Origin: Paraphaeosphaeria minitans
Lineage: Eukaryota > Ascomycota > Dothideomycetes > Pleosporales > Didymosphaeriaceae
Assembly (NCBI GenBank): GCA_015832175.1
Contig: WJXW01000006.1
Coordinates: forward strand, 372,001-436,000
DNA: 64,000 nucleotides
Direction: 5' to 3'
The notes below the pieces were generated by a model that was not told the DNA's origin, made no database searches, and was given only the letters and a program-made list of their open reading frames with translations. Made by a program: the position numbers and the translations under genes. Shown in pieces: positions 1 to 61,497 of this stretch. Every line of letters begins with the position of its first letter. Within the stretch, counting starts at the first letter, position 1.

Positions 1-3000
1 AATTAATAATTCTAGGTAGTTAATAGATTATTTCTCTACTTACTTACTTTTATTCTGTAATTATTATGCTTATATTTTATAGATTTAATAGCCTTTTAAA
101 TCTATTAAACTACTAATAAGTAAGAGCCTTTATAAGGCTATTTACTAGCATTTTGCTAGTTAGAAAATATTCTACTTAAAATAATCCTTTTGTATACTCT
201 TACTGCAACTATATATTCTAAATATCTATATAGCGCAGTTAAGTAGTGATTCTTTTGTTCTTTCTAATTACTAAACAAATAGTTTAAAGATTGTTATAAT
301 AGACCTTTTATAAAGGTTCTAGATTTAGAGTAAGCTTAGTAAAGAATCTCTTAATCACTATAGCTTCTTTACTTATATATTTAAGTGCTAGAAGCTCTGC
401 TTCTATTATTAAAGTAGTAATTATATTCTATTAAGCTGCTTTCTATAGGATAGCTCCTCTAAATAATAGGATTGTAGGTTTGGCTCAATCTGCAATTAAG
501 CATTTGAGGGTTGATAGTATACTATCGTGCAAAGGGTAAGAAGTAGGTTCAATTGATTACGTCTGGTCTATCGTACAAAGGGGCACTGAGGGCTTTATGA
601 AGTCTCTGCCTCTTAGCGCTGACCTAAGTAGTGGGTCCTTGTGCGGGTCCCTATAGGTAGGCAGGCCCCCACTTCACCCAGTGCTACTTGTACGATAAAC
701 TGTACGGACAAGGATAATATATCTATAGGAAGATCGCCGTGATATTAGATTATTAGCAAAAGAGGCATCTCTATATATTAGTAGATTAGGTCTATTATAG
801 CCACTAAAGACTATAGCCTGCTATCTAGTTTAATAGAGGTAAAAGATCACATAATTAATAGCAGCAAAGTGTTCTTTACTTAGATTTATTAGAAAGTGTA
901 ATAGCTTTAACACTATAAAGGCTATATTTAGGCGTAGTATAATTACTATATAGAGAGCTAATTCCACTTCTTCTTAAAAGAGTTTTATTTATTAAGGAGT
1001 GGCTTCTCCTGTGCTTAGAATAAGATCTTCTACTAATAGAGGTGTAGGAGGGAAGCTCCTAGAGTTTAAAAGGTTAAACTTTTTTGTAATCTTATTAATA
1101 TAGGTATTATAAACTAGAGAAATTAATCTTACTTCTCTGTCCCTAATTATTTAAACACCTAGGAACTACTCTACTAGTTCTTTTAATTTAATCTTATATT
1201 TATTCGCAATCTTCTTTTCAAAATCTAGGGCTTCTTTCTCTTTACTCTTGTAATAGAGAAGAAGAATGTTATTAATATAAAATAGAATAATAATACTTTA
1301 ATCACTATTAAAGAAAAGGTATAGCTCTTCTAGCAAAGCTAAGAGTCTATAAGATTAAAGTAATTCTGTAAATTCCTTATACTAAAGAAGTAGTGAATCT
1401 CTTAAGCTATATAAAGCTTAATTTAATCTTACACACTTTCTTAGCTTTTTAAAACTATTAGGTAATTCATAAGTTACTAGATTAGCGGCTGTAAGAAGAG
1501 TATTTAGAAACGCTCCTACTATATTAAATTATAAGATTTCTAGATTAAATTCTACTACTAGAGCTACAGCTAATTAAAAAGATCTTACTGCTAGGGTAGT
1601 AGTATAGGTAGAGTAGAGAGTATTCTTTTTCTAAAAATCTCCTCTTATAATAATTTAAGCTTTGCACTTTTCAAAGTATCTATTTTAATTAAACTTATAG
1701 GTAAACACCTACTTTAAAAGGAGCAGTTACTTTAACACCTCTAATTATTTAATCTCTATCTAGGTACCTTTATCTTATAAAGTTAAGATCTCCTTATAAG
1801 CAGTAAGGAGGAATAGCTTCCTATATAGATAATTATAAAGGTGTTTCTATAGGGTTAGTTCTAGTGTAAGCTTGTCTCTATAAGTCTAAGCTATATAAGA
1901 CGCTCTAAGCGCCTTTCTAAGCATAGAAGCAAATACTATCGTATTTAGTATAATATATTCTTCTTGCTTAGACTAGGCCTCTACTACTCCTACTATAAAC
2001 GTGTGCTCTAATATTATATTAAAATTACTTTAAAGATAATTAGTAATTAGTGCATAAGCACCTAGCTTCTACCTACCCCCTAGCTAATTATCCTAATTAT
2101 TTTGCTTCTTTAATCTTCGTAATAGCAGATAGCGATTTATTAGTTAGTTAATTTCTAGTACTTTACTATAATTTCGCCTACTTATTCTACTTACCTCTAG
2201 ATAAATCTGCCTTCGTCTTTAGTACACTAGTAGGTTATCTGCTTTGTCTAGCGTAATTAAGTTATCTACGCTAGGTTAATTAGTAACCTAATTAGTTTCT
2301 ACTAATAAATAAGATATTAAATCCCTAGATTCTAGCGGGCTAGCTCTCTTAGTAGTGTTCTAGTGGCTACTAGATATATCTTAATTACTTAATAGATTAC
2401 CCCTAAGATTACCTAGCTCTAGTGTCTAATTAGGGGTTATAAGTCCTATACTTCCTTTCCTACTTAAGCAAATTCTTAGCTGCTAGCTAGCTAAGCCTAC
2501 AGCTTGCTTAGTAGTAAGTACTTTAGGTTTCTAATTACTTAGCTAGCCTACTTCGCTTTTAATTACCTAAGGGTTACCTATAAGTCTAGTAGTAGTTCTT
2601 ATATACTTATTTGTTTTAGGAAGAATATTAAGCGCGTTTTTATACGCTTCTTCTAGATTATTTAGCTCTCCTTTTTAGAGGCTTTCTACTATTTTTAACA
2701 CTTCTATCTTTAGAATAGATTATTCCTCTAATTCTTTATAGAATAAGGACTTATTAAACCTTACGTTTTATGTAGTAATTACCTAATTAAGCTAGGAAAT
2801 CTATATTTAGTAGATATTAGAAGCTTTATAGCCTATTAGGTATCTAATATAGCCCCTAGGATTTACTTTAAATCCTCTTTTGTTTTACCTAGCTACACGC
2901 TCTTAATCTAAAGGGTAAGCTTAGTAGCTATAGGCGTAGACAGCACTCTAGTTTAGACAAAGATTAGCTGTCCTATATTATATTTTTACTAGTTTAAAAT

Positions 3001-5691: not shown

Positions 5692-8600
5692 ATAGCGGTT
5701 AAGGAGAAGAATATTAAAGAGGCTAAATTTTGTAAGGCTGTTAATCTAGTAGTTAATAAGACTTCCTTAGGTCCCTTCTTATCCTCTGTAACATAGAGCG
5801 CTTTTAAGGATTTCCTATTAGAATTCTAGGATAATCTAGTGCCTTTACTATCTTAGGTACAAATATTATTGTGCTGTGTAGGTTATTAGTAGAATTCTTT
5901 AATCTTTTATTAATAGTTTCCTAAGTAGTTCTCTAGTTCTTAAGTGTTTTCGCTGTGTAAGTAACTTTTCTACTTAATAAGGTATGCGTTGCTATGCTAA
6001 TTATATTCTAGAATTTTTTTAACCTTAAATTTATTTTCTTCTTTAGTTCTGTAGTAGAAGGCGGTTCCAACTAGTGTATTAGGGTCTACTAGTTCTAGTA
6101 GTGATATGTTGAATACTAGATATATTTTTGTATCTAGTGGTAGTTCCAACTTATAATTTACTAGTAATATTTACTTAGAAATGTAAAATAGTCTAACTTT
6201 AATATAATCTAGTTTCTTGTGTTTTTTCTTCTAAGTTTAAAGGTTCTTTATAAGCAGATATGCTTTATCCCCCTTCTTTAGCTAAGGTGCTATTTTTTAT
6301 TTTTAATTTTAGTATAAAATTAATTGCTGCTAAGCTTTTTTAAGATTTTCTTAGAGTTGTTAGTGTATTTTCTTTATATTTTCTACTATATCTATGGCTT
6401 CTTTTGCTTTGATTATCGTAGGAAATTATTGGTTAAAGAGATGTGGGTGTCTTCTATAGTTTATATAGAATAGTGTATGTCCTAATACTACTAATACTTT
6501 GTTATTATAGGCTAACTGTGCTATAGGTAGTAATAAAATCTAGTTATTCTTCTAACTGTTGTAGTAGATGCGCAGGTACGTTTCTATAGTTTAGTTTATA
6601 CGTTCTATTTATCTGTTAGTTTGTGGATAGTAAGCTGTTAATAGTTTTTGTTTTGTTCTAAGTAGTGCTATAAGCGTTATCTAATAATTTAACGTAAAGA
6701 GCTTGTCTCTATTACTAATAATTATTTTTAGGATTCTGTAGTATCTAATTAGTTAGTCTAAGATAAGAAAAGCAAGTTCCTTTGCTATTATTCTTTTAAG
6801 GCATAGAATAAGCTTAATATACTTAGTTAGTTAGCAGACTATTACTAGTATACTATTGTATTTAATTCCTGTTATTAAATCCTTAGAGTTTAGAATTCCT
6901 GTAATAAAATCTATAGCGATGTCTTCTTATAGTGTTATTAGTATTCTAATTGCTTGCATCTCTCTATATTTAAAATATATACTATATTTGTTTTTCTAGT
7001 ATTCTACACATTTATAGATATAAGTTATTACAGTTTCCTTAATTCCTTTAAAGGTGTAATTGCTTTAGATAAGTTTTATTATTTTTGTAATGCCTAGGTG
7101 TCTGTACATAGGGTTATTATAGTATTATTGGATAATCTTAGTCTGTAGATGTTCTAGAACTTCTTGGTTAATTACTAAAAGTTAATTTAGTTTTACTGTT
7201 AGTTCTAGAGATCTATCTTTGGCTTTGCGAAGGATTATAGAGAAGGTTTTTACTTTTTCTCCTACTAGATTACTTTATTAGCTAAGAGCGTCTGCTCTGC
7301 TATTTTCTTTCCTAGCTATATAGATAATTTTAAACTTATACTGCCCTATAGTTTATAACTATCTTTATTATTATGGCGTAAGTTCTTTTATTGTTGTGAA
7401 CCTTAGAAAGTTCTTATAATTTATGTAGATTTCTAGTGTTAAGTAACTAAGCCCGTAAATCCTCTAGTATTTTAAGGCTTTAATAATAGTGTAGAGTTCT
7501 TTGTCGTATATATTGTATTGTGTTTTGGCGTTATTAAATTTGCATAAGTAATAGGTAATTAGGTGCTATTTACTGTTACGTTCTTATTTAGCGTAGGCGC
7601 CTAGTGCAAGATCGCTAGCATCTGTTTTAAAGCGTAGTAGTTTATCGCTTCTAAAATAAATAAGGATAGGTTCTATAATATATACTATCTTAAGGAGTTA
7701 GAATAATATTCTGCACTTATCTATCTATTTAAAGGGTACGTCCTTCTTTGTAAGATTTATTAAGGGTATTGTAACCTTTATATAATTTTAGATAAATTGT
7801 CGATTAAATCTATAGAATTTTAAGAATTTTTAGATGTTCTTAGCTATCTTTAGTATTAGCTAGTTCCTAATATATTTAACTTTACTTAGTGCCATCTTAA
7901 TTCCTTTTATAGTAATAATGTGTTCTAGGAATTTAAGTTATTGAACGTTAAACTTATATTTCTTAAGTTTAATGTAAAGGTATGCTTTGTCTTTCTAGTA
8001 CTATCTATACATGCTTAGTGTAGTCTAATTCGTTTTTAGAAAAAACAAGGATATTATCTATATACGTAATAATAAATATATCTAGATGTTTATAAAGTAC
8101 GTTATTAATAAGTGCTATAAAAGCTGCTAGTGTATTTGTAAGTCTAAATAGTATAACCTTATACTTAAATAGTGTGTAGCGTAATTAAAACGCTGTTTTC
8201 TATTCTTTACTTTTTTTAATTTATATAAAGTGGTAACTGTCTCTTAGATCTATTATTGTGAATATCTTGGCTTAAGATAGTTAATCTCGTAACTCTATAA
8301 TATTTAGTAGTAGATATTGGTTCTTTATTATTATATTGTTAAGTTGTTAGTAGTTAACGTATAGTCTGTCTAATCTATCCTTTTTCTTAATAAATATAAA
8401 AGGGCTTACTGCTAGTAACTTTAATAGTTATATATATCCTTTCTTAAGGTTTATCTTAATAAAATTACGTTCTTTAAGAAGTTCTTCTCCTATCTTACTA
8501 TATAGTAGTTTAAAGGGTGGCGTCTTCCCTTCTTCTAGGTCTATTATAAGATCCTAGAGTTAATGTTTAGGTAGGTTCGCTTTCCCTTCCTTTTCTATAA

Positions 8601-11488
8601 ATATATGTGTTTATTTCCTATACTCTCTTAGTAAGGTAAGGGGTAAACTATTATCCTCCTTCTTGCGCTTCTTAACCTAGTAGTTCCTGCTAGGGTCTGC
8701 TAAGGTATGCTTCTGTTTTTTAACTATCTATTGCGATATTATATTATTAATAACTCCCTTATCTACTATCTTTTTTAGTTAATGCGTAGGCTTTACTTAT
8801 AATATATAATTACAGCGTTTAAATAATATTTTCTTTATACCCTAGTTAATCTGCGGGTTGTATATTATTAACTAAGGTAATTCTAAGACTAACTTATGCT
8901 TAGATCCTAGTAAGACATCTAAGGTAAGTTCCTTTCTATGTTCTTAGACTATTATTATAGTAGTAACCTCCTAGTATATTTAAGGTGTCTTAGGCATTAG
9001 GGATCTATTTGCGATATAAATAATATAGGGTACTTCTTTCTCTAATATTATAAGTCCTGCTTATCTTGCTGTCTAATAAAATATAAAGTCCTTTTCTACT
9101 CCTAAGTCTATAAGAGCTTAAGCCTGTATTCCTTTAAGCTGTACTAGTAGCTTAACTAATACTATGCTTACTATAGTATTTAATTTAATAAAGGCGTTTT
9201 CTTGTCTAAGTTTAGGCCTAAAAAAGACATCTGTTTATATAGGTTGTAGTTAAGTTCTAGTGCCTAGTATGCGTTTCTAAGCATCTGCTTCTATTATTAT
9301 TCTTAAGTATATAGCTTATGTAGATTGTCTTCTTCTTCTTTTAATAAGGATATTCTTCTATTGTTTCTCCTGTAGTCTTTACTATTCCTATGTACTAGTT
9401 AAATTAGTAGCTCTATTATTACTTCTTATATAGGGTAGTTTATAAAGCTGTCTAAACGTTTAGCTATATAGTAGTATTTGTAGTCTTAGTTTAGACACGT
9501 GTACTAGTATAGTTATATATAGTCTCTATTAATAAGTATATTACAGCATTTGTTGCCCTTTAGCGTAAGGTAAGGAAAGTATTTTACTTATTATTTATTC
9601 TAGAGGTGTTTGTTATAAGCTGTGATAGAGTAGTCTATCTATATCTATTTATAGTGTAGTTTTCTTCTAAGTTATTTCTTATTCTCTTTTTTCTCTGCCT
9701 TATGTTGTGCGCATGTTGGTTCTTTACAATATATCTATATATAGAATTAGTGTATAGGATTTTAGTAGTCTAGGTAGTACTTTAGTACGTAGTCTAACTT
9801 CTTATTTTTGTAGGGTTGTATTCCTTTTAGTGCCTAGTAGGGTTCTATATAGTCCTAAACATTTAGTTTATACTTAGGTGACATAGGGTTGTCTTCTTCC
9901 TGCCTACTTTATAGGTGAGGAGTAGGAGATCTTAGTATCTCTTCTACGTTTTCTATATTATAGTATACGTTAGAGTTATCTTTTGGATCTTTGTATAGTT
10001 ATAAGTTAGGTAAATCTAATCACTTACTTTATTCTAGCGTAACGCGTTAGTAACTAAATAGTGTTATAATAACTTCCTATTCCTTATTAGGTTCTTAGTC
10101 CTTAATAGTTAGTATATTTAACTTAGTTTAATAGACTTTATTCTTTAATCTATAGTTTCTAGCTATGTAGCCTAGTTTGCCACATGTAAAGCATTTATGG
10201 GTCTTAGTTATTAGTTGTTAACTTTTATTAAAAACGCGTTTATTAGGCTGCTTAGGGCCTATCTTTCCTTCTTTTCTTTTATCTATGTAGTTAAACTAGA
10301 CATTTTCTATTAGTTTATATCTCTAGTAGTTCCTTAGCTATTGCTTTTAGATAATTCTAATAAGGTTCTTATAAACTACTTTTACTAGTTATCTAAAGCT
10401 TATCGCTCTAGAGTTTTAGTAGAGCTCTTATTATAATAAAAACCACTCTCTGTTAATCCTAATAGTTTCTTTGTATAGTTCTTTAAGGTTAGTAATTTAT
10501 GCACTACTACGTAAGAGTTCCTCACGTAGTTTCTATTTAAGTCCTTATTTATATATATCCTAAAGAGATTTATTGTCCTAGTTAAGTTGCACAGCGTATC
10601 TATAAAACTTAGCTATATACTTAGCTACTAATTATTTCTAAATTATAGTCTAAATCTTTGCCTTTATAATAGAGTTCTTATTAGTAATCCTAAAGAGTTG
10701 TTTAAGGCATTTCTTAAAGTTGTTATAATCTTTAATAATATTAACTGTATTAGCGTGCTTGTTTGCGTAATTATCGTTATTATTGTTATAGTCTATTTCT
10801 AGGTACTTTTTAAGGTAGGGATGGATCTATAATCCTGCATCTCCTTACATATATATTACTATAAAAATAACCTTCTTTTTATCTTTAAGTAGTTTGTCTA
10901 AGTTAAAGAAGTAGAGGTCTAACTAGAGAATCTAGACGTTAGTTTAAGATTATTTACTAAAGTAGAGATTAGGTTTATGCGCCTTACTGCCATCCTTTAT
11001 AGAAGTAATCTTGGCGGCACCTAAAGCTATAGAAGAGGTAGGAGTTTGTAAAGTACTTATATTAAGGCTGTTTAAGATGTTAAATCTAAGAGGGTAGCTA
11101 GTCCTAAAGGGTTAAGGTTAGTTCTTAGGTAGAAGTACTTACAGAAGGTAAAAGGTCTTATTAATACAATAGTATCTTGCGAAGTGTAATAAGTTAATAA
11201 TTTAGTCTGCTAGAATCCAAACGATAGATTAATTAATAGATTAAACATAAGTATAGAGAGCCTATCCTTACGTTCCTATATACTTTAAGCGATTAGTGGA
11301 CTAATCGCTCTAATTAAACTAATTAAGCACTAATTAGTTACTTAGTATATTAAGTGCTTAGTCTAATTAGCTGTCTTGGCGCTCTGATTACACTAATTAG
11401 GTCACGTGACCTTTTGTGCTGTGCCACTCGAACAACAAATGTAGATACATATGAAGATCCTGGGAGGCCTAGCCTTCGGATCTTAACA
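5692..11488 (-). mobile_element. Gypsy-1: RIP-degraded Ty3/Gypsy retrotransposon
   Basis: Minus-strand conceptual translation gives a full Gypsy domain order. The gag zinc knuckle is at 10,152-10,193, with two ligands changed to Tyr. The RT region is about 7,880-8,520 and includes KKKDRLDRLYVNYQQLN-like text and a palm YIDN at 8,053-8,058. RNase H is about 7,380-7,660 (TDASDLALGAYAK). The integrase core is about 6,540-7,010 (DFITGILNSKD, then TAYYPQTN and IERIN). Right-end sequence starting TGTTAAGATCCG on the minus strand (ending at 11,488) probably belongs to the 5' LTR and recurs at 19,856. I found no matching 3' LTR at the left, so the copy is probably truncated there. Many stops. Confidence 0.88.
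11200..11488 (-). repeat. Probable 5' LTR and leader of Gypsy-1
   Basis: The end at 11,488 reads TGTTAAGATCCG on the minus strand. The segment is repeated at the right end of the Gypsy-3 fragment (about 19,560-19,856). It carries a 12-bp palindrome GGTCACGTGACC at 11,400-11,411. The inner boundary is not resolved because no second LTR of this copy is present. Confidence 0.55.
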
Positions 11489-11930: not shown

Positions 11931-12125
11931 TGTTAAAGTAAAACACTTACTTCTGTGATTCTTTCTAGATCCACTAATTTATATTACAGGATTCTTGCTA
12001 AGAGGCTTGTTTCTTTTGTATATAGTCTGCCCTTTTGGCATCCTTTCCTATAATTAGCTATTTGTATTCTTTATAACTCTGCTCCTGAATATCCTGTGAT
12101 AGTTCGAGCCCTTTTTACTACAACA
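11931..12125 (-). mobile_element. LTR of family B, inverted copy
   Basis: This is the reverse complement of 5,497-5,691 with scattered transitions; it begins TGTTAAAGTAAAACAC and ends ACTACAACA. Flanks are GGGTG and AGTTG, which do not match, so it is not a simple solo insertion. The right flank is Gypsy-2 sequence equivalent to about 8,345 of Gypsy-1, whereas the left flank is not Gypsy. This suggests a deletion or rearrangement at its left edge. Confidence 0.75.
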
Positions 12126-12733
12126 AGTTGTTAGTAGTTAACGTATAGTCTATCTAATCTATCCTTTTTCTTAATAAATATAAAAGGGCTTACTGCTAGT
12201 AACTTTAATAGTTATATATATCGTTTCTTAAGATTTATCTTAATAAAATTACGTTCTTTAAGGAGTTCTTCTCCTATCTTACTATATAGTAGTCTAAAGG
12301 GTAGTGTCTTCCATTCTTCTAGGTCTATTATAAGGTCCTAAGGTTAATGTTTAGGTAGGTTTGCTTTTCCTTCTTTTTCTATAAACATATATATCTATTT
12401 CCTATACTCTCTTAGTAAGGTAAGGGGTGTACTATTGTCCTCTTTCTCGCGCTTCTTAATCTAGTAGTTCCTACTAGCGTCTACTAAGGTGTGCTTCTGT
12501 TTTTTAACTATCTATCGCGGTATTATGTTGTTAATAACTCCCTTATCTACTATTATTTTTAGTTAATGCATAGGCTTTGCTTATAATGCACAATTATAGC
12601 ATTTAAACAATATTTTCTTTGTACTCTAGTTAATCTGCGGGTTGTGTATTATTAACTAAAGTAATCTTAAAACTAACTTATACTTAGATCCTAGTAAGAC
12701 ATTTAAAGTAAGTTCCTCTCTATATTCTTAGAC

Positions 12734-13045
12734 TATCTATACAGTTTATTGTACAAATAGCACTAAGTAAAATAGGGGCCTACCTACCTATAGGGACCCG
12801 CACAAGGACCCACTACTTAGGTTAGCGCTAAGAGGCAGAGACTTTATAAGGCCCTACCTACCTATAAGGACCCGCACAAGGACCCCCTACTTAGGTTAGC
12901 GCCAAGAGGCAGAGACTTTATAAGGTCCTTAGTGCCCCTTTATATAATAGACTAGATATAATTAATTAAACCTACTTCTTACCCTTTACATAATAGTATA
13001 CTATTAACCCTTAAATACTTAATTATAGATTAAGCTAAACTAACA
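12734..13045 (+). repeat. 5' LTR of element A1 (312 bp)
   Basis: It starts TATCTATACAG (a RIP form of TGTCTGTACAG) and ends CTAAACTAACA. It contains two tandem copies of an approximately 75-bp GC-richer unit that includes TTAGCGC and AGGCAGAGACTTTATAAGG. Confidence 0.9.
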
Positions 13046-13269
13046 CTAATTAGTAGTTAATTCTAATTAACTATAAACTAGTAAGGTCTAAAGACAAAGC
13101 GCCCTATAAGCTAGATACATAGGCTTTGTATTATTACCTTTACTAGAGATCAAATTTTAGATTATATAATAAGTAGAAACAAAGCGCGCATATTTGTAAA
13201 GAGTCGCATAATCTAGTCTAAGCTATCCTATAGAAAAGAAAGGAGATAGTAAGCACATTTATAATCCTA

Positions 13270-13380
13270 AAAAATACGTCGCATAATTAAACTAGCAATA
13301 ACTAAACGTAAACACGTCGTATAATTAAACTAGCAATAACTAAACGTAAACACGTCGCATAATTAAACTAGTAATATACT
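13270..13380 (+). repeat. 38-bp tandem repeat inside element A1
   Basis: About two and a half copies of a 38-bp unit containing ACGTCGCATAATTAAACTAG and CTAAACGTAAAC lie just inside the 5' LTR, upstream of the gag-like region. The same array, with about three units, occurs in element A2 at about 21,970-22,100. Confidence 0.8.
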
Positions 13381-15484
13381 AATACAGTCTAGTCGCACGA
13401 TTTAATAAGACAACAACATAGCACTAGAACTAGGAGACTTCCTAGAGGAATCTGTATAAGAAGGAATTACACAATAAGCTACCTAGGAGGATAACTTAGA
13501 ATAGCTTTAATAAGTAGAGGAAGTAACAAATATTAAGGCTATTACCTTAAGAGGAGAGATTGCACAAAAGTACTAAGTAGATAGAGTAAATCTACACAGC
13601 CACCTACCCCCTTCTCTAAAACAGCTAAACACTTATATAGTGTATATAATTACATAATATTACGTAAGTAGCCTTAAAGGTAAAAAGGTAATCTCTTCTT
13701 TTGCTAAAGATTTTAATAACTAGAAAGAAAGAAACTTTAATAAAATTAGTTATATAGTAAGAAGAGAGCTTATCGCTTTTCTTATAAAAGAAGGCTTTAT
13801 TACTACTAATATTATAATAAAAGACACCTATATAAAGAAACTCTTTAGACTATTACAGCTTAACTATAAGCTACAGACCCTTTATATAATAACGCTGTAA
13901 CTATAACCTAAACCACTTCGCACGATCCTAATAATGTAACCTACACTATCTATAGGCAATACATATATATATAGAGCACAGCTAGGGCCTATCCCTATAC
14001 GTGCGAGGACAGAGACACTATATATAGAGCCACACTAGTAGTAGTAGCCTAAAACCTAGACTACTTTTACCTAATAAACTATATTATATAAAGAGGCTAG
14101 ACACTTCTAGTCTCTTTAATAACTAGGAGATTATGCTTATATCTAGCTAGATAAGATTATTCTCTTTTAGAAGGCTTAGAGTAAAGAGAATAACTACACT
14201 AGTAGGCTATATAATATTTTAATAGATAAGGTAAAAGTCTTTAGAGAACTATACTACAGGCTAGGTATACTATAGGACTAGTATGTAAATATCTTTCTAG
14301 GAATCCTTTCTAATCGTGTAAGCACCTACTACCTATATAATATTAGACTAGGACTTCTATAGGATAAATTGTACAACAGACTAAATAGGCACTTTAACAC
14401 TAGTGTTAATTACAATTAGTACTAGATAGACTAGACTACTCTTACTTTTAAACACTATAAAAGGGATAATCTAGCTACTATATCGCACAAGGCCCTAGAA
14501 GTAATAATTAATAAGCTTACTTTAGCCTAAAGAGCTCTTAAATAAGGCTTTAGTAGTAAACTATAACTACACACTACTATTATATAAGCATGCTGCGGCT
14601 ATCCTAACCTTAAATAAGCTATGTTTAACCCTAAAAATATAGTAGAAGGCTTACTTAGCGACCTTTATACGTTACTTTAAGTTACTAAAGATAGGAAGAA
14701 GTTATAGTTCCTTTAAAATAGTGAAGAGGTATACTACACTAATTAATAATATAATAATTCTAATCGCATAAGATAATCTAGCCCCTCTAGAGGCAGGTTA
14801 ACCTTTAGACTAAAAAGAAGGGGCAACTTTAGAAGTTTAAGCTTTTATATAAAGTAGAAATGCTTTATATATTATAAAAAAGGATGCTAGTCTACTAACT
14901 ATTTACTAAGGGATACCTAGTGAGCTAGAAGGTAATATATGTTATTGTATACTAACTTCTATAAATATAAACCCTCTACTATAGATGTATAAGTATATAT
15001 CTTTAACTTTAAAGAAGAGCTAGAGGATAAAGACCATTACACAAAAGAAAAGGAAGATAAACAAGACTAATAAAGTAATAAAGAAGAAGCACAGAAGGCT
15101 ACCTTATACCTCACTTCTACTATATACCTTTATTACATAACTAGGAGCGATCCTTCTATACCTACTTACTAAGACCTAGCGCTAAGTATTGTATTACTTA
15201 ATACTCTACCTTTTATTTACGCATAGGATATATGCCTAGAAAGAGCCTTATTATATAATATAACTCTACTACTATACAAAGGGGTAGAGTAAGAACTAAG
15301 TAGGTTAGCTATTACTGCCTATTTATATAAAAGTAGGTGCAAATAGGACCTCTACTATATAGTAACACTGCACCTACCTTATAACCTATTCTAATAGGGG
15401 AAGGCTAACTATATAGATAGAGAAGGATAGGAAAGAGAAAACGTATAATAGATATAAGCTATTGCACAAAAGAAAAGTTACTAG

Positions 15485-15796
15485 TATCTATATAGTTTAT
15501 TGTATAAATAGCACTAAGTAAAATAGGGGCCTACCTACTTATAGGGACCTGCATAAGGACCTACTACTTAGGTTAGCGCTAAGAGGTAGAGACTTTATAA
15601 GGCCCTGCCTACTTATAAGGACCTGCATAAGGACCCCCTACTTAGGTTAGCGCTAAGAGGCAGAGACTTTATAAGGTCCTTAGTGCCCCTTTGTACGATA
15701 GACTAGACGTAATTAATTAAACCTACTTCTCACCTTTTGTATAATAGTATACTATTAACCCTTAAATGCTTAATTACAGATTAAGCCAAACCAATA
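15485..15796 (+). repeat. 3' LTR of element A1 (312 bp)
   Basis: It starts TATCTATATAG and ends CCAAACCAATA, in direct orientation relative to 12,734-13,045, with dispersed transitions between the two copies. A purine-rich run (about 15,466-15,477) lies shortly before it and could be a remnant polypurine tract. Confidence 0.9.
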
Positions 15797-18139
15797 TAGA
15801 CTGTTATTATAGTACTGACCTCCTAGTATATTTAAGGTGTTTTAGACATTAGGGATCTATTCGCGATATAGATAATATAGGGTACTTCTTTCTCTAATAT
15901 TATAAGTCCTGCTTATCTTACTGTCTAGTAAAATATAGAGTTCTTTCCTACTTCTAAGTCTATAAGAGCTTAAGCCTATATTCCTTTAAGCTATACTAGT
16001 AGCTTAACTAATACTATACTTACTATAGCATTTAATTTAATAAAAGTGTTTTCTTATCTAAGTTTAGGCCTAAAAAAAACATCTATTTATATAGGTTATA
16101 GTTAAGTTCTAGTGCCTAGTATACATTTCTAAGCATCTGCTTCTATTATTATTCTTAAGTACGTGGCTTATATAGATTGTCTTTTTCTTCTTCTTATAAG
16201 GATATTCTTCTATTTTTCTTCCTACAGTTTTTACTATTCCTGTGTACTAGTTAAATTAATAGTTCTATTATTACTTCTTACGTGGGGCAGTTTACAAAGC
16301 TATCTAATTATTTAGCTATATAGTGGTATTTATAGTCTTGGTTTAGATATATATACTAGTATAGTTATATATAGTCTCTGTTAATAAGCATATTATAGTA
16401 TTTATTACCCTTTAGCGTAAACTAAGGAAAGTATTTTACTTATTACTTATTCTAGAGGTGTTTGTTACAGGCTGTAATAAGGCAGTCTATCTATATCTAT
16501 CTATAGCGTAGTTTCTTTCTAGGTTATTCTTTATTCTCCTCTTTTTCTACCTTATATTATGCGTATATTAGTTCTTCGCAATGCGTCCACATATAGAATT
16601 AGTATGTAGGATTTTAGTAGTCTAGATAGTACTTTAGTACATAGTCTAACTTCTTATTTTTATAGAGTTGCATTCCTTTTAGTGCCTAGTAGGGTTCTAT
16701 ATAGTCCTAAACATTTAGTTTATACTTAGGTGACATAAGGTTATCTTCTTCCTACCTACTTTATAAGTAAGGAGTAGGAGATCTTAGTATCTCTTTTATA
16801 TCTTCTGTGTTATAGTATATATTAGAGTTGTCTTCTAGATCTTTATATAGTTATAAGTTAAGTAAATCTAATCGCTTACTTTACTCTAGTGTAACGCGTT
16901 AGTAACTAAATAGCGTTATAATAACTTCCTATTCCTTATTAGGTTCTTAGTCCTTAATAGTTAGTATATTTAACTTAGTTTAATAGACTTTGTTCTTTAA
17001 TCTACAGTTCCTAGCTATGTAGCCTAGTTTGCTATATATAAAGCATTTATAGGTCTTAGTTATTAGTTGTTAACTTTTATTAGAGACGCGTTTATTAGGC
17101 TACTTAGGGCCTATCTTTCCTTCTTTTCTTTTACCTATGTAGTTAAACTAGACATCTTCTATTAGTTTGTATCTCTAGTAGTTCCTTAGCTGTTACTTTT
17201 AGACAATTCTAATAGGGTTCTTATAAACCACTTTTACTAGTTGTCTAAAGCTTATTACTCTAGGGTTTTAGTAGAGCTCTTATTGCAGTAAAAACTATTC
17301 TTTATTAATCCTAATAGTTTCTTTATATAGTTCTTTAAGGTTAGTAATTTGCGCACTACTACGTAAAAGTTCCTTATATAGTTTCTATTTAATTCCTTAT
17401 TTATATATAGCCTAAAGAGATTTATTATCCTAGTTAAGCTGCACAGCGTACTTATAAAACTTAGCTATATACTTAGCTACTAATTATTTCTAAGTTATAG
17501 TTTAAATCTTTACTTTTATAATAAAGTCCTTATTAGTAATTCTAAAAAGTTATTTAAGGTATTTCTTAAAGTTATTATAATCCTTAGTAATATTAACTGC
17601 ATTAGCGTGTTTATTTACGTAATCATTATTATTATTATTATAGTCTATTCCTAGATACTTTTTAAGGTAGAGATAGATTTATAATCCTATATCTCTTTAC
17701 ATGTATATTACTACAAAGATAACTTTTTTCTTATCTTTAAGAGGTTTGTTTAAGTTAAAGAAGTAAAGGTCTAACTAGAGAATCTAGACGTTAGTTTAAG
17801 ATTATTTACTAAAGTAAAGATTAGGTTTATACGCCTTACTACTATCTTTTATAGAAGTAATTTTAGCAGCACCTAAAGCTGTAGAAGAGGTAGGAGTTTA
17901 TAAAGTACTTATATTAAAAGTGTTTAAGATATTAAATCTAAGAGGATAGCTAGTTCTAAAGGGTTAAAGTTAGTTCTTAAGTAGAAGTATTTATAAAAGG
18001 TAGAAAGTTTTATTAATATAATAGTATCTTGTAAAGTGTAATAAATTAATAATTTAGTCTACTAGAATCTAAATAATAGATTAATAAATAGATTAAATAT
18101 AAGTATAAGAAGCTTATTCTTGTGTTCCTATATACTAAG

Positions 18140-18382: not shown

Positions 18383-19856
18383 ATAACTACTTACTTTATC
18401 CTAGTGTAATACGTTAGTAACTAAATAGCGTTATAATAACTTCCTATTCCTTATTAGGTTCTTAGTCCTTAACAGTTAGTACATTTAACTTAGTTTAATA
18501 GACTTTGTTCTTTAATCTACAGTTCCTAGCTATATAGCCTAGTTTGCCATATATAAAGCATTTATAGGTCTTAGTTATTAGTTATTAACTTCTATTAGAG
18601 ACATATTTATTAGGCTGCTTAGAACCTATCCTTCCTTCTTTTCCTTTACTTATATAGTTAAACTAGATATCTTCTATTAGTTTATATCTCTAGTAGTTCC
18701 TTAGTTATTACTTTTAGATAACTCTAATTAGGTTCTTATAAACCACTTTTACTAGTTACCTAGAGCTTATTACCCTAGGGTTTTAGTAAAACTCCTATTA
18801 TAGTAAGAACTATTCTTTGTTAATTCTAATAGTTTTTTTATATAGTTCTTTAAGGTTAGTAATTCGCGCACTACTACGTAAAGGTTCCTTATATAGTTTC
18901 TATTTAAGTTCTTGTTTATATATATCCTAAAGAGATTTATTATCCTAGTTAAGTTACACAGCGTATCTATAAAACTTAGCTATATACTTAGCTACTAACT
19001 ACTTCTAAGCTATAGTCTAAATCTTTACTTTTGTAATAGAGTTCTTATTAGTAATTCTAAAGAGTCATTTAAGGTATTTCTTAAAGTTATTATAATTCTT
19101 AATAATATTAACTATATTAGCGTGCTTATTTACATAATTATTGTTATTATTATTATAGTCTATTCCTAGGTACTTTTTAAGGTAGGGATAGATTTACAAT
19201 CCTATATCTCCTTATATATATATTACTATAAAGATAACCTTTTTCTTATTATTAAGAGATTTGTCTAAGTTAAAGAAGTAGAGGTGTAACTAGAGAATCT
19301 AAACGTTAGTTTAAAATTATTTACTAAAGTAGAGATTAAGTTTATACGCCTTACTACTATTCTTTATAAGAGTAATTTTAGCGGCACCTAAAGCTATAAA
19401 AGAAGTAGGAGTTTATAAAGTACTTATGTTAAGGGTATTTAAGATGTTAAATCTGAGAGGGTAGCTAGTCCTAAAGGGTTAAGGTTAGTTCTTAGGCAGG
19501 AGTACTTATAGAAGGTAGAAGGTCTTGTTAATACGTTAGTATCTTAACTAAGTGTAATAAGTTTACAATTTAGTTTACTAGAATCTAAACAATAGATTAA
19601 TAAATAGATTAAATACAAGTATAAGAAGCTTATTCTTACGTTTCTATATACTTTAAGTAATTAGTAGACTAATTACTCTAATTAAACTAATTAAGCACTA
19701 ATTAGTTACTTAGTATATTAAGTACTTAGTCTAATTAGTTGTCTTGGCGCTCTAATTACACTAATTAGGTTACGTAACCTCTTGTGCTGTGCCACTCGAA
19801 TAACGAATATAGATATATATAAAGATCCTAGGAGGCCTAGCCTTTAGATCTTAATA
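18383..19856 (-). mobile_element. Gypsy-3: third fragment of the Gypsy-1 family
   Basis: This aligns with Gypsy-1 from about 10,026 to 11,488 in the same orientation, covering gag and the 5' LTR region. The terminal GATCTTAATA matches the Gypsy-1 end with one transition. A palindrome GGTTACGTAACC at 19,768-19,779 corresponds to the Gypsy-1 palindrome. The fragment lacks pol. Confidence 0.85.
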
Positions 19857-20404
19857 GGCAAATATAGGTATACCTAAACTAGACGTTAGATAGGTAATTT
19901 AAGGATTAAAAAGTGTTAGAAAAGTAGTAGTAGTGGCTTTATATATATAGTGCCTATAAGATAAGAGTAATAGTAAGAGATTGTAAGTAAAAACTAGCGC
20001 CTATAGGCAATTCTTATAAGCAAAGCTTAACTATCTAAACAGCTTATATTAAAATAAAGCTACTACTACTATAGTATAAGGTATTAGGCGGGTATTAGCT
20101 TTCCTAAAAAGCTATAGTTATAGTGAATAATACTAGCCACGTATAGCTAGAGACAAAGCGTTGTGTAATAAATAGTATTAGTTTTAAATAGTAATAAGGG
20201 ACCGCGCTAAGCTTAAGTAAAGATTATACTAATAGTAAGCTAAAGGCGTACACTAGGCTATAACTAGAGCGTGTAACTAAAAATAAAACAACGCTTTTAG
20301 CAATGGCTTCTACTTACCTCTATACACACTTTCTATAATATCCTACCTAATATATTCTGCCCAATACTATCCTAATACCTATAATAATAGATAATAGCAA
20401 AAGC
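19857..20404. other. Unassigned AT-rich repeat DNA, left flank of element A2
   Basis: No reading frame or recognised domain. Continuity with 22,758 onward is implied by the shared AAAGC target duplication around element A2, so this is the left part of an older host sequence of unknown nature. Confidence 0.5.
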
Positions 20405-20716
20405 TATTAGTTTGGCTTAATCTACAATTAAGCATTTAAGGGTTAATAGTATACTATTGTACAAAGGGTAAGAAGTAGGTTTAATTAATTACGTCTAGTC
20501 TATTGTATAAAGGGGCACTAAGAACCTTATAAAGTCTCTGCCTCTTGGCGCTAACCTAAGCACGGGGTCCTTATGCAGGTCCTTATAGGTAGGCAGGGCC
20601 TTATAAAGTCTCTACCTCTTAGCGCTAACCTAAGTAGTAGGTCCTGATATAGGTCCTTACAGATAGGTAGGCCCCTATTTCACTTAGTGCTATTTATACA
20701 ATAAACTATATAGACA
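20405..20716 (-). repeat. Left LTR of element A2
   Basis: It starts TATTAGTTTGG and ends ACTATATAGACA, is 312 bp long, and carries two copies of the internal 75-bp unit. Confidence 0.9.
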
Positions 20717-22126
20717 CTAGTAACTTTTCTTTTGTGTAATAGCTTATATCTATTATACGCTTTCCCTTTCTTATCCTTCTCTATCTATATAGTTAGCCTT
20801 CCCCTATTAGAATAGGTTATAAGGTAGGTGCAGTGTTACTATATAGTAGAGGTTCTATTTACACCTCTTTTTATATAAATAGGTAGTAATAGCTAACCTA
20901 CTTAGTTCTTACTCTACCCCTTTGTATAGTAGTAGAGTTATATTATATAATAAGGCTCTTTCTAGGCATATATCCTATGCGTAAATAAAAGGTAGAGTAT
21001 TAAGTAATACAATACTTAGCGCTAGGTCTTAGTAAGTAGGTATAGAAGGATCGCTCCTAGTTATGTAATAAAGGTATATAGTAGAAGTAAAGTATAAGGT
21101 AGCCTTCTATACTTCTTCTTTATTACCCTATTAGTCTTATTTATCTTCCTTCTCTTTTATATAATAGTCTTTATCCTCCAGCTCTTCTTTAAAGTTAAGG
21201 ATAATATTATCTAGCTAAATAGAAGTATAATCTTCTAGTTATTAAAGAGACTAGGAGTGTCTAGCCTCTTTGTACAATATAGTTTAGTAGGCAAAAGCAG
21301 TCTAGGTTTTAAGCTATTGCTACTAGTATAGCTCTACATATAGTGTCTCTGTCCTCGCACGTATAGGGATAGGCCCCAGCTATACTCTATATATATATAT
21401 ATTACCTGCAGATAGTGTAGGTTACATTATTAGGATTGTGCGAAGTAGTTTAGGTTATAGTTATAGCATTATTATGCAAAGGGTCTATAGCTTATAGTTA
21501 AGCTATAACAGTCTAAAGAGTTTCTTTACATAGGTGTCCTTTATTATAATATTAGTAGCAATAAAGCCTTCTTTTATAAGAAAAGCAATAAGCTCTCTTC
21601 TTACTATATAACTAATCTTATTAAAGGTTTTCTCCTTCTAGTTATTAAAATCTTTAGTAAAAGAAAAGATTACTTCTTTACCTTTAAGGCTGCTTACGCG
21701 ATATTACGTAATTATATACACTATATAAGTGTTTAGCTGTTTTAGAGAAGGGGGTAGGTGGCTATATAGATCTACTCTATCTATCTAGTACTTTTATACA
21801 ATCTCTCTTCTTAAAGTAATAGCCTTAATGTTTATTACTTCCTCTACTTATTAAAGCCATATTACTTTATCTTCTTACTAAGAAGGCAGTATTAATTATT
21901 GCGCAACATCTTTAGGTTATAGTTTCTCTAGAAAGTCTTCTAGTCTTAAGGCCATATTATTATTATCTTTCTTAGTTAAGCGACGTGTCTACGTTTAGTT
22001 GTTGCTAGTTTAATTATGCAACGTGTTTACGTTTAGTTGTTACTAGTTTAATTGTGCGATGTGTTTACGTTTAGTTATTACTAGTTTAATCGTGCGATAT
22101 GTTTTTTAGGGTTGTAAATGTGCTTA

Positions 22127-22356
22127 CTATCTCCTTTCTTTTCTATAGAATAGGTTAGACTAGATTATGCGACTCTTTACAAATATGTGTGCTTTATTTC
22201 TACTTATTATATAATCTAAAATTTAATCTCTAGTAAAGGTACTATCTCCTTTCTTTTCTGTAGAATAGCTTAGACTAAATTATACGACTCTTTATAAATA
22301 TGCGCGCTTTATTTCTGCTTATTATATAATCTAAAATTTAATCTCTAGTAAAGGTA
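22127..22356. repeat. 115-bp tandem duplication within element A2
   Basis: Units 22,127-22,241 and 22,242-22,356 both start CTATCTCCTTTCTTTTCT and end CTCTAGTAAAGGTA. They differ by scattered transitions only. Element A1 has a single copy (about 13,125-13,250). Confidence 0.85.
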
Positions 22357-22445
22357 ACAATATAAAGCCTACGCATCTAGCTTATAGGGCGCTTTATCTT
22401 TAGACCTTGCTAGTTTACAGTTAATTAGAATTAACTACTAATTAG

Positions 22446-22757
22446 TGTAGGTTTAGCTTAATCTATAATTAAGTATTTAAGGGTTAATAGTATACTATCG
22501 TGCAAAGGGTAAGAAGTAGGTTTAATTAATTACGTCTAGTCTATTGTACAAAGGGGCACTAAAGACCTTATAAAGTCTCTACCTCTTAGCGCTAACCTAA
22601 GCAGGGGGTCCTTGTGCAGGTCCTTATAGGTAGGCAGGGCCTTATAAAGTTTCTGCCTCTTAGCGCTAACCTAAGTAGTGGGTCCTTATGCAGGTCCCTA
22701 TAGGTAGGCAGGCCCCTATTTCACTCAGTGCTATTTGTACAATAAACTGTACAGACA
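22446..22757 (-). repeat. Right LTR of element A2
   Basis: It starts TGTAGGTTTAGC and ends ACTGTACAGACA, 312 bp. This end keeps more of the unmutated sequence than the left LTR. Confidence 0.9.
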
Positions 22758-24250
22758 AAAGCCCTTATAAGAGATATAAGTAAGATTACGAATATTTAAC
22801 TAATGTAAATATAAAAAAGAATATAGCTCTTTACAATAAAATAGGTCTAGAGCAGCATAAATAAGCTAATATAAAAAATATAGATAATAAGATAAAGTTA
22901 ACATTCTAGAATATAAAGTGTAAACCAGCCTATTAGTATTTAATTAATACTGCTAAAGAAGATTACAAGGAGACTCTAATAAAGTAATTACGTATCTAAT
23001 TTAATAATATTATTACTATATTTTAGTAAGTATATACCCTAAGGTATTAGTAAGTATTAGTCCCTAATACTAATACAGGTTTAAGGAAGGAAAGCTTTAG
23101 CAGTAACTAGTAATTAAGAATAGGGCTTATATTCCTTCTAAGACACTAGAGGAAGAACTCGTTTACTAAGAAGTTTCTTACTTTATCCCTAGCTTCCTAC
23201 CTATTAAAGTGTCTACTACCTAGCCTTAGTTATCTTTAGCTATAGTACCTATTTCTAGTAGTAACAAAGAAGATTAGAAAGATGTAAAAATCTTTTAAAA
23301 GGTATTATTACTTATAATAAAAGACGAACGTAGTAAGGAGAGAAGAATAAGCTTTTTATAGTAGAACTTTATACACTAGAGAGAACTTAGGGCTTATTTA
23401 GGACGGAAATACAGCGTTGTAATTAGGCTAGAAGCCTACTTTTACGAGCGCTAATTAGCTCCTAAAACCTAACGTAACAATATTTTGCTAATTCTAAAGT
23501 AGATATACCTAATTACACTACGACGTACCCCCCTTTCTTTTGCACGCACAGGTAGGCTTAACTATTACTACCTAGTACTAAGAAAACTCTACCACCCTTC
23601 CCTTTCTACTACTTTTAACAAAATATACTTCTACCTTAATAATGCTACCTTCTTTACTAGCACCTATAGCTTACATTCTATTTTTATAATTATTATCTTC
23701 TTTATCTATTACTAGTAACACAGATAATGCCTCTATAACACCTATAAACACTATTATAACAGTTTAATACAGTAATACCCCCCCTAGCACTAAGGCACCT
23801 ATTATACACGATATAGAATTACTTATAAGTAAAGACGTAGCTGCTATATTTATAAGAATAAAGTTAGTGTCTATAAATCGCGTCGCCTTATAGTGCTAAT
23901 ACTATATAGAGATCTCTAGGCATCCCTTCTACCTACCTTTACCTTGCTTAACGTATTTAAACTGCCTTTATATACACTATTAAATCTCCTACTTTAGCAC
24001 GTAATTATAGTACCTATATAAATAAATACTAAGATAGTAGGAGATAGTACTTTACTCCCTCTAGTGTTAAGGTCCTAGTAGCTTATATTTATTAAATACT
24101 ATTTAATTATTATTATATAGTATTAATAGTTTCTGTGATAGGCTAGGGTATAGCCCCAGCCTTTAGAAGGATCTTAAGGAAAGGAACTGCCCTAAAAAAG
24201 TGGACCTACTAAGGAAAACTCTTCTTATAAGCAGCACACCCCCCTATAAA
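22758..24250. other. Unassigned AT-rich repeat DNA
   Basis: This is the right flank of element A2. Conceptual translations are broken by stops and I recognise no domain. It may include the 5' LTR and leader of the downstream Gypsy-4, but no matching repeat was found at the other end. Confidence 0.45.
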
Positions 24251-29300: not shown

Positions 29301-30239
29301 GCCCTAGGGTTATAATAACTAAAGTGGCACTAAAGTAACACTAAATAGGAATAAAGGGGGGCTATAATAACTATATTACTCTTTACACTAGTAGTAGCGG
29401 CACCTAAAAAAGTGCACTAAGCTAGTCCTAAATAAAGGCTTAGGTAGAGTTACTCTATAAGACTCTTAATATAGGTTAAAAGGTATACGCTATTAGACTA
29501 GAGCTGCTAAAAGGGTAGAGTAGCGTTAGCTAAGAGCTATCCTAAGTCGCTTTATAATAGTAGTAAGTAAGTTAGTAGTTTATACTTAAGTCTAAGTTAT
29601 TTTATTTAGGCGCTAGCCTATGCTTTTCTTAGATCACTAGATATAATTTTTTATATTATTTATTTACCCTACTATATTATTAGCTAGCGCTACTAGATTC
29701 TAATTATAGTTACTACTACGCTAGGCTAGAGTTATCTAGAGTAAAGGTGCTACTAGGGCTATGTCTATACTAGGGGGGGCAACTACTATTCTATTACTAC
29801 GCTAAGGTGGGGGTATAGTAGAGGAGTCTAGCTTCTAGATTAGGCTAGAGTTCTTAAGCGCTAAGTTTAGGTACTACTTATACTACTAGGCTAAGCGGTA
29901 GAACTCTACTATAAAGGTAGGCAGCGTTCTAGTTATAGGCTTCTAGGGGTTAGTGCTATATATTTTAGGATTATAGATGTGTAAATTGCTATTAATCTGG
30001 CCTTACTTTACGTATTTAATCTAGAGGCGTAGAGCCCGCCTTAGGCCTAGGTTATTAGCGAAGGGGGCGGAATTGTACTAGTAGGTGGCCTTAGTGTAAT
30101 AGTAGGCGCTATAGGAGTGGCCCTAGAATAGTTAATAGCTATATAAATATTAATAATAGTCTAGAATATAAGGCTATAGACTTACTCTACGCGCTTAAGC
30201 TACTTAAAGGTCCTCTAGTCTATCGCTCTTACTACCTAA

Positions 30240-30545
30240 TAGCTATTTAAAAGTCTATTAGTCTATTGTTATTTTATTCCTAGGTAACTAATAACTACTT
30301 AAAAGTCTATATAGTTTATACTAGCACTAGATAGCTACTTAAAAGTCTATTAGTGTGTCGTTTTATTTCTAGGTAATTAGTAACTACTTAAAAGTCTATT
30401 AATCTATCTATCTAGGCAACTAATAACTACTAAAAAGACTATACAGTCTATTTATCTATATACCCTATAGCTGTTTAAAAGTCTATTAGTCTTATTACTC
30501 TATTCCTAGCTATTTAGTAGCTACTTAAAAGTCTACTAAATAGCT
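30240..30545. repeat. Degenerate minisatellite-like array
   Basis: A core motif close to CTACTTAAAAGTCTATTAG occurs about seven times, spaced roughly 40-55 bp apart, with variable filler containing TATTCCTAGG. Units are diverged by transitions. Confidence 0.7.
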
Positions 30546-30639
30546 TTTATTAGTTCTCCAATTACTTATTACTATACTTCTCTACATCCTTTTAAAAGTA
30601 GCCCTATATCCCTTACTAAATATAGTGTTATAGGTGCGT

Positions 30640-31150
30640 TTGCCTTAAGTAAGGAATATAAAAAAATAAGTTAAGTTATTCTATCTAAAATCTATTATAT
30701 AAATCTAACTACTCTAATTATCTATTAGGTCTCTTCGTGTCTTATCTAGTTAGGTTCCTTCCTTCTATCTATTCCCTAATTAGCTATCTTAAACGATAGC
30801 TAATTGGTCCTATGTTTCTCCGACTCTCTATCGTAGGCCAACCTTTACACTACACTACCCTATTAGATTTAATAACTAACTACGCCGCACGCGCTACTAT
30901 ATAAAATAGTTATATATATTATTATGTTTATAGTATGCCTTACGTGAGGAGTATAAAAGAATAAGTTAAGTTATTCTATCTAAAATTTATTATATAAATC
31001 TAACTACTCTAATTGTCTATTAGGTCTCACCTTCGTGTTTTATCTAGTAGTAGTGTATGTCTCCCTTTTTGTCTCTTCCCTAATTAGCTATTAAAATAAT
31101 AACTAATCGGCCCTATATTTCTCTAACTTTCTATTATAGGTTAATTTTTA
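30640..31150. repeat. Pair of ~215-bp direct repeats
   Basis: The copy at about 30,640-30,860 and the copy at about 30,940-31,150 share GTTATTCTATCTAAAAT, ATCTAACTACTCTAATT and CCCTAATTAGCTAT, in the same order and orientation. They could be decayed LTRs of a small element or a local duplication. Termini are not resolved. Confidence 0.65.
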
Positions 31151-56404: not shown

Positions 56405-56535
56405 TGTTGAATGGTAAAGTAGAGAGTATAAGTAATGGATTGATCTAGCTAGTGGGTGACGTATATATCAATAGAGGACTAGCTCCTTCCATGGGCGCTA
56501 GGCACCTTCCGGCTGCACCGGAAGTTCCTTCAACA
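56405..56535 (-). repeat. 3' LTR of Copia-2 (131 bp)
   Basis: It starts TGTTGAATGG and ends CCTTCAACA. It differs from the other LTR at only two positions, both transitions in RIP context. Confidence 0.95.
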
Positions 56536-61366: not shown

Positions 61367-61497
61367 TGTTGAATGGTAAAGTAGAGAGTATAAGTAATAG
61401 ATTGATCTAGCTAGTGGGTGACGTATATATCAATAGAGGACTAGCTCCTTCCATGGGCGCTAGGCACCTTCCGGCTGCACCGGAAGTTCCTTTAACA
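61367..61497 (-). repeat. 5' LTR of Copia-2 (131 bp)
   Basis: It starts TGTTGAATGG and ends CCTTTAACA. It carries the mutated base at both positions where the LTRs differ (G to A, C to T). Confidence 0.95.

What the first reader, a model, noticed from the sequence alone, without database searches (positions are those of the whole stretch)
12734..15796. A gag-only, TR-GAG-like LTR retrotransposon in a fungus
Element A1 has 312-bp LTRs and a perfect TAGAC duplication (seen). Its 2.4-kb interior shows a gag-like frame with a CX2C...GCW-type knuckle remnant, and I found no RT, RNase H or integrase. Such gag-bearing non-autonomous elements are described mainly in plants. A fungal family with three copies here would be notable. 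Function and mobilising partner are inferred.
Basis: partly seen in the sequence, partly recalled or inferred. Interest (0 to 1): 0.75.

Follow-up and report, generated by a model that had tools for sequence, protein, structure and literature searches.

The report
Gag-only satellite of fungal Copia retrotransposon
This is a cut-down jumping gene in a fungus that kept only its coat-protein gene and probably spread by borrowing the enzymes of a longer relative; such gag-only satellites are known mainly from plants, and here the longer relative and a further cut-down version can be seen beside it.

Summary
A1 (12734-15796) has 312-bp LTRs, a TAGAC duplication, an empty site in the same window and a gag frame without pol. 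It belongs to a high-copy family: 39 near-complete interiors among 40 scored of 515 candidates. The gag is real: the frame equals a Paraphaeosphaeria minitans protein at 449 of 451 residues if only C>T/G>A changes are allowed, and the modelled core resembles Arc/Ty3/retroviral capsids. Yet A1 is no one-off deletion copy: one ~4.2-kb deletion, from the gag/protease border into the 3' UTR, was propagated as its own family. A2 carries the same deletion plus 834 bp removing capsid and zinc knuckle. Two open 648-aa gag frames survive; no intact pol copy was seen in the scored lists. Best reading: a gag-only (TR-GAG-like) non-autonomous derivative mobilised in trans by its Copia parent. New are the fungal host and the three-step series; Gag supply to the parent is inferred.

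The parts
12729..12733 (.). left target-site duplication TAGAC
   Evidence: empty site at 8890-9009
12734..13045 (+). 5' LTR of A1 (312 bp), TA..CA ends (TG at the start in most fetched copies)
12772..12929 (+). 74-bp tandem duplication inside the 5' LTR
   Evidence: also at 15523-15680 in the 3' LTR
13046..13085 (+). leader next to the 5' LTR (primer-binding-site position); identical to that of one pol-bearing member apart from two transitions
   Evidence: priming tRNA not identified
13272..13382 (+). 38-bp x 2.9 tandem array in the leader
13418..15361 (+). gag frame, RIP-damaged (many TAA/TAG); equivalent to the open 648-aa frame on contigs C15 and C19 (end estimated from the 648 aa)
14132..14716 (+). 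capsid-like core (P0002 residues 67-261), all helical
14858..14902 (+). zinc-knuckle remnant; C-X2-C-X4-C-X4-H in the relatives
15134..15170 (+). pol-deletion junction: gag homology of pol-bearing members ends at about 15151; 3'-UTR sequence of the same members begins by 15170
15152..15484 (+). tail derived from the parent's 3' UTR, partly translated as the C-terminus of the gag frame
15468..15477 (+). polypurine stretch AAAAGAAAAG upstream of the 3' LTR
   Evidence: role inferred
15485..15796 (+). 3' LTR of A1
15797..15801 (.). right target-site duplication TAGAC
8890..9009 (+). empty site of A1 in the second copy of the host repeat
   Evidence: 91.7% over 120 bp
20405..22757 (-). A2: same family and same pol deletion, plus an 834-bp deletion removing capsid and knuckle (junction about 21198); TSD GCTTT at 20400-20404 and 22758-22762
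473..710 (-). solo LTR (one 74-bp unit), TSD ATCCT at 468-472 and 711-715, little RIP
   Evidence: (printed sequence)

Best explanation
A1 is one copy of a non-autonomous, gag-only LTR-retrotransposon family derived from a one-frame Ty1/copia element (about 7.3 kb) that still lies, RIP-killed, in the same genome. A single deletion of about 4.2 kb, from the gag/protease border into the 3' UTR, removed protease, integrase, RT and RNase H but kept LTRs, leader, gag and the 3' end (shown by coordinates). The shortened RNA kept the signals for packaging and reverse transcription and was copied and integrated in trans by the parent's enzymes, giving many insertions with different 5-bp duplications (propagation shown; trans-mobilisation inferred from shared LTR and leader). 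A second deletion of 834 bp within gag gave a still smaller class (A2) that also spread, so Gag in cis is probably not needed (inferred). RIP later hit nearly all scored copies; two open gag frames remain, on contigs C15 and C19.
For: Uniform family: 39 near-complete interiors among 40 scored of 515 candidates; the junction runs through all 30 fetched copies; 22 of 30 have exact 5-bp TSDs, 4 of 30 differ by one base, 4 of 30 do not match. Pol-bearing members: 61 scored of 354 candidates run gag-PR-IN in one frame; 39 scored of 220 candidates carry PR-IN and RT-RH (78 matches). Same LTRs: A1 5' LTR versus one long member's 5' LTR, 298 identical, 14 transitions, 0 transversions, 0 gaps. Among gag matches 75 of 93 scored include the 3'-UTR-derived tail and 18 of 93 stop at residue 405-407, where the long members enter pol. 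The tail 33-mer sits about 1 kb after RNase H in long members and before their 3' LTR. LTR pairs found by LTR motif alone: 13 at 2.6-3.0 kb, 7 at 6.9-7.1 kb, 3 at 1.75-2.1 kb, 11 other. Gag identity: 449 of 451 residues with RIP allowed, against 15-18% in five shifted registers; capsid-like fold. Open 648-aa frame in 2 of 93 scored, on C19 with LTR motifs on both sides. A2 nested on the same deletion.
Against: No transposition, transcription or protein was observed. No intact pol-bearing copy was seen (0 of 61 scored; 0 of 39 scored), so no present driver is shown. The 30 fetched copies are the best matches to A1, so their shared junction is partly by selection. LTR and leader identity between long and short members rests on one long member (L003). 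PPT identity was not tested, and the priming tRNA not identified. For the C15 gag copy only one LTR motif was found. Two RT pieces of presumed long members gave no Pfam match by themselves and are recognised through a relative. An ungapped comparison of A1 with the N-terminal part of P0011 failed (22 of 195 identical, 23% with RIP allowed) and its C-terminal part reached 83%; a gapped search matches the N-terminal part at 59%.
Confidence: 0.88

Rival explanations
1. Simple deletion copies: A1 and A2 are individually decayed remains of the autonomous element and never moved in their short form.
For: Pol-bearing members with the same LTRs exist, and A2 differs from A1 by a deletion.
Against: The same pol junction runs through all 30 fetched copies, with mostly different target duplications (22 of 30 exact). 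The A2 deletion recurs in L004, L005, L007 and L008 at the same place to within a few bases. A1 has an empty site with one TAGAC, so it inserted as the short form or was deleted there identically to all others.
Confidence: 0.04
2. The gag-only element is a frozen retrocopy of a spliced, gag-only subgenomic mRNA of the one-frame Copia parent (as made by BARE1 and by EVD in plants), not the product of a random deletion.
For: The deletion starts just after the gag homology and ends in the 3' UTR, so all gag and no pol is kept. The parent reads gag-PR-IN in one frame in 61 of 61 scored copies, so a separate gag transcript would be useful. Spliced gag-only RNAs are described for BARE (PMC3735527, abstract) and EVD (PMC8892269, passages).
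Against: The intron ends could not be read. In BARE the RNA destined for packaging is a separate, uncapped class (abstract). A template-switch deletion explains the same junction.
Confidence: 0.25
3. The gag frame is a fortuitous open frame or a host gene captured between LTRs.
For: No Pfam or NCBIfam gag model matches P0002, and the database name shown is only 'CCHC-type'.
Against: P0002 is 37-58% identical to 13 aligned relatives (fungal or unnamed), several of which (P0005, P0012, P0017, P0020) run on into protease and integrase in one chain. The ten best Foldseek matches are Arc, dArc1, SIV, HIV and MLV capsids. The same gag is followed by pol in long members.
Confidence: 0.01

Closest known systems
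[quoted passage not shown] Chaparro et al. 2015, recalled and cited in PlantLTRdb, PMC10025401, passages read)
   Same: LTRs, gag present, no pol domains, multi-copy; the 3.1-kb length is a little below the plant first quartile of 3,608 bp given there.
   Different: Fungal host, RIP-mutated, and the pol-bearing parent shares the LTRs. None of the 12 papers listed for TR-GAG with retrotransposon has a fungal title (listing); for TR-GAG with 'fungal' one plant review came up (listing).
RLG_Quinta / RLG_Cereba pair of Einkorn wheat (PMC11302176, passages read)
   Same: Gag-only element derived from a full element by loss of RT and IN, with shared LTR termini and primer site; the authors propose that it supplies GAG.
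   Different: That pair is Gypsy (RLG) and plant-centromeric, with strongly diverged gag lineages and an extra domain; here Copia, gag close to the parent's, no extra domain seen.
RLG_Sabrina_SA 'semi-autonomous' elements of wheat (PMC9744471, passages read)
   Same: Gag kept, RT and IN lost, with further reduced variants beside it, as A2 beside A1.
   Different: Sabrina_SA keeps protease and is proposed to be driven by a separate family (RLG_Wilma); here protease is also lost and the driver is the direct parent.
BARE1/BARE2 of barley (PMC3735527, abstract read)
   Same: Copia (recalled), and one class uses the particles of another.
   Different: The opposite gene is missing: BARE2 cannot make Gag.
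TRIM elements of Cochliobolus heterostrophus (PMC4112212, passages read) and LARD/TRIM screening in Pseudocercospora (PMC13041039, passages read)
   Same: Non-autonomous LTR elements in Dothideomycetes (class recalled for Pseudocercospora).
   Different: Nine elements annotated as TRIMs in the first; in the second LARDs and TRIMs are screened by length and the word gag does not occur in the main text. No gag-only family is described in the passages read.

Membership tests
TR-GAG (gag-only non-autonomous LTR retrotransposon) | two LTRs with target-site duplication | tested here: met
   22 of 30 fetched copies with exact 5-bp TSD
TR-GAG (gag-only non-autonomous LTR retrotransposon) | gag coding region with capsid and zinc knuckle | tested here: met
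   A1 frame is RIP-broken but homologous; an open 648-aa frame exists in 2 of 93 scored copies
TR-GAG (gag-only non-autonomous LTR retrotransposon) | no protease, RT, RNase H or integrase in the element | tested here: met
   the deletion junction runs through all 30 fetched copies. Members with pol exist as a separate, longer class
[quoted passage not shown]
   conserved leader next to the LTR and AAAAGAAAAG before the 3' LTR in most fetched copies; no tRNA identified
Ty1/copia (for the parent) | pol order protease-integrase-RT-RNase H | tested here: met
   rve before RVT_2 in relatives P0017, P0018, P0020, P0022; PR-IN before RT-RH along the genome at the 39 scored places. The rve scores and three of four RVT_2 scores lie below the curated cut-offs
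Ty1/copia (for the parent) | 5-bp TSD and TG..CA LTR ends | tested here: inconclusive
   met for the short class; for the long class only one 5' LTR with TG start was read, its duplication was not checked at the other end
autonomous/non-autonomous pair (criteria as in PMC11302176) | identical primer-binding site and LTR termini | tested here: met
   one long member, L003: 40-bp leader and whole LTR equal apart from transitions
autonomous/non-autonomous pair (criteria as in PMC11302176) | identical polypurine tract | not tested
   no long-member 3' end could be fetched
TRIM | very short interior without coding sequence | tested here: not met
   2.4-kb interior with gag
LARD | large non-coding interior | tested here: not met
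   the interior codes for gag

The most novel reading that the evidence does not exclude
A three-tier system in a filamentous fungus: a one-frame Copia parent, a gag-only class fixed in the genome like the spliced gag-only mRNA of plant Copia elements and supplying the Gag excess that a single Gag-Pol frame cannot give, and a third class lacking capsid and knuckle that lives on both. Gag is thus a shared good, with a cheater class visible beside the supplier.
Probability: 0.27. Interest if true: 0.66.

Novelty: new member of a known kind. Interest (0 to 1): 0.47.

Why it matters
Gag-only LTR elements are known mainly from plants, and their driver usually has to be guessed. Here the parent, the gag-only class and a gag-deleted class lie in one 47-Mb fungal genome with matching LTRs, and two gag frames escaped RIP. 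That makes a question testable by RNA and insertion data: is a gag-only element a parasite or a Gag supplier, and can Gag be dispensed with in cis?

Full report
What was claimed.

The observation. It is right. The LTRs are 12734-13045 and 15485-15796, 92% identical, and all 26 differences are transitions. TAGAC flanks both ends. The element sits in a repeat whose second copy in the window (8890-9009) is the empty site with a single TAGAC, 91.7% identical over 120 bp. The left part of the window is AT-rich (GC 0.31 for 1-31000 against 0.50 for 32001-56000) with a strong RIP signature (TpA/ApT 1.9 against 0.72).

The genome. The held genome (47.45 Mb, 30 contigs, no name) holds P0002 at 100% in an open 648-aa frame on C15 and at 98% in another open 648-aa frame on C19; the other 91 of 93 scored matches carry many stops (536 candidates). 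The host is therefore P. minitans or a very close relative (inference).

A family, not a copy. The LTR motif occurs at 775 places at up to 2 mismatches (reversed control 0). Among 40 scored of 515 candidates, 39 interiors, A1 included, are near-complete. Of the 30 fetched (A1 and the next 29 by score), 22 have exact 5-bp duplications, 4 differ by one base (one of these, L029, with a truncated 3' LTR) and 4 do not match (L010 and L021 have partial LTRs; L015 and L031 have full ones). All 30 align across the pol-deletion point, L014 with several substitutions and L034 with one missing base. They were chosen as the best matches to A1, so this sharing is partly by selection; the LTR spacings below are not.

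The refuter is met. With P0005 (gag-PR-IN) 61 scored matches of 354 candidates run through gag, protease and integrase in one frame. With P0018 (PR-IN-RT-RH) 78 matches at 39 scored places of 220 candidates show both halves of pol. Among the 100 listed LTR places (of 775; C1 and part of C2) there are 13 same-strand neighbours 2.6-3.0 kb apart, 7 at 6.9-7.1 kb, 3 at 1.75-2.1 kb and 11 others under 9 kb. All 7 of the 7-kb pairs contain a P0005 match on the same strand, and none of the 13 short pairs contains a listed P0005 or P0018 match (compared by me). Locus L003 holds the 5' end of one 7-kb member (C1:3040860-3047847): its LTR differs from A1's 5' LTR by 14 transitions and from A1's 3' LTR by 24, with 0 transversions and 0 gaps in both, and the 40-bp leader differs by transitions only. 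All long members listed are RIP-broken. RT identity rests on homology to P0018, whose RVT_2 match lies just below Pfam's cut-off (28.0 against 31.6 bits; P0017 reaches 31.7), and on two RT pieces in the flanks of L005 and L027 (47-48% identical to P0018), which by themselves match no Pfam model.

The deletion. Gag matches fall into two groups: 75 of 93 scored reach residue 447 or beyond of P0002 and 18 of 93 stop at residue 405-407, at the gag/protease border. The sequence that follows in A1 (15152-15484) is not foreign: a 33-mer starting 19 bases downstream occurs at 301 places (reversed control 0). In long members it lies about 1 kb beyond the end of RNase H and 429 bp before the 3' LTR motif (6 of 6 measurable long members; 5 further long members had no listed LTR motif in range). 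So one deletion of about 4.2 kb explains the gag-only class, which agrees with the difference between the spacings (6.96-7.07 kb against about 2.8 kb).

A second step. A2 (20405-22757, minus strand, TSD GCTTT) lacks interior bases 1119-1952, 834 bp and a multiple of three; L004, L005, L007 and L008 carry the same deletion to within a few bases. The lost part covers P0002 residues 77-355, that is the capsid core and the knuckle. A2 matches A1 at 95% over 1953-2439, which includes the pol-deletion junction, so this class descends from the gag-only class. It too has inserted, with its own duplication, which argues that Gag in cis is dispensable.

Mechanism. Shown: shared LTR and leader with one long member, one junction, independent insertions, nested second deletion, gag homology, RIP. 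Inferred: the parent's protease, integrase and RT acted in trans; Gag came from parent or satellite. The parent reads gag and pol in one frame. Plant Copia elements with one frame make a spliced gag-only RNA to obtain excess Gag (PMC3735527, abstract; PMC8892269, passages). A gag-only element with exactly gag kept is what reverse transcription of such an RNA would leave, or what selection for Gag supply would keep; that is the novel reading, which my data neither show nor exclude. Against present activity: no intact pol-bearing copy was seen, so the copies with open gag on C15/C19 may be stranded.

Comparison. Gag-only or gag-protease elements with a proposed driver are described in wheat (PMC11302176, passages; PMC9744471, passages), and TR-GAG is a class in PlantLTRdb (PMC10025401, passages). 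[quoted passage not shown] PMC4112212 (passages) reports TRIMs, and PMC13041039 (passages) screens Pseudocercospora for LARDs and TRIMs. My searches (titles and abstract openings in listings, without a hit) brought up no fungal gag-only family, but the library lacks most subscription journals, and LARD-type sets may hide such elements. I therefore file it as a new member of a known kind.

Noticed in passing
G000 contigs C8, C15, C19 and C20: Of 40 stop-free RVT_1 rows in the capped list, 28 lie on these four contigs, and both open gag frames lie on C15 and C19, while most other rows are RIP-broken: perhaps an un-RIPped compartment. One intact 1280-aa family is also spread over other contigs.
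   Followed up: partly
window 57342-58019 (-): Lightly mutated Copia RT (RVT_2, 132.5 bits) at the border between GC-balanced and AT-richer DNA; not matched by this lineage's P0018.
   Followed up: no
window 8341-11486, 12125-12740 + 15797-18136, 18389-19854: A high-identity (about 89-91%) AT-rich repeat in several copies hosts A1; its own identity was not determined.
   Followed up: partly
window 473-710 (-): A solo LTR of the same family looks much less mutated than the LTRs of full copies, as expected if short repeats escape RIP (the length limit of RIP is recalled).
   Followed up: partly
window 56405-56535 and 61367-61497: Direct repeat of 131 bp, 98.5% identical, on both sides of a region of lower GC.
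   Followed up: no
window 30217-31134: Local degenerate repeats (78-84% identical) close to the AT/GC border.
   Followed up: no
C7:1149676-1150320 (L006): Two family LTRs in tandem about 25 bases apart, preceded by only the last ~156 bases of an interior.
   Followed up: no
P0011 (PMIN01_13425, P. minitans): The annotated 323-aa protein joins the gag N-terminus to the tail, skipping capsid and knuckle, close to but not at the A2 deletion; no open frame of that form was listed in this genome. It may be a gene-model intron or another deletion.
   Followed up: partly
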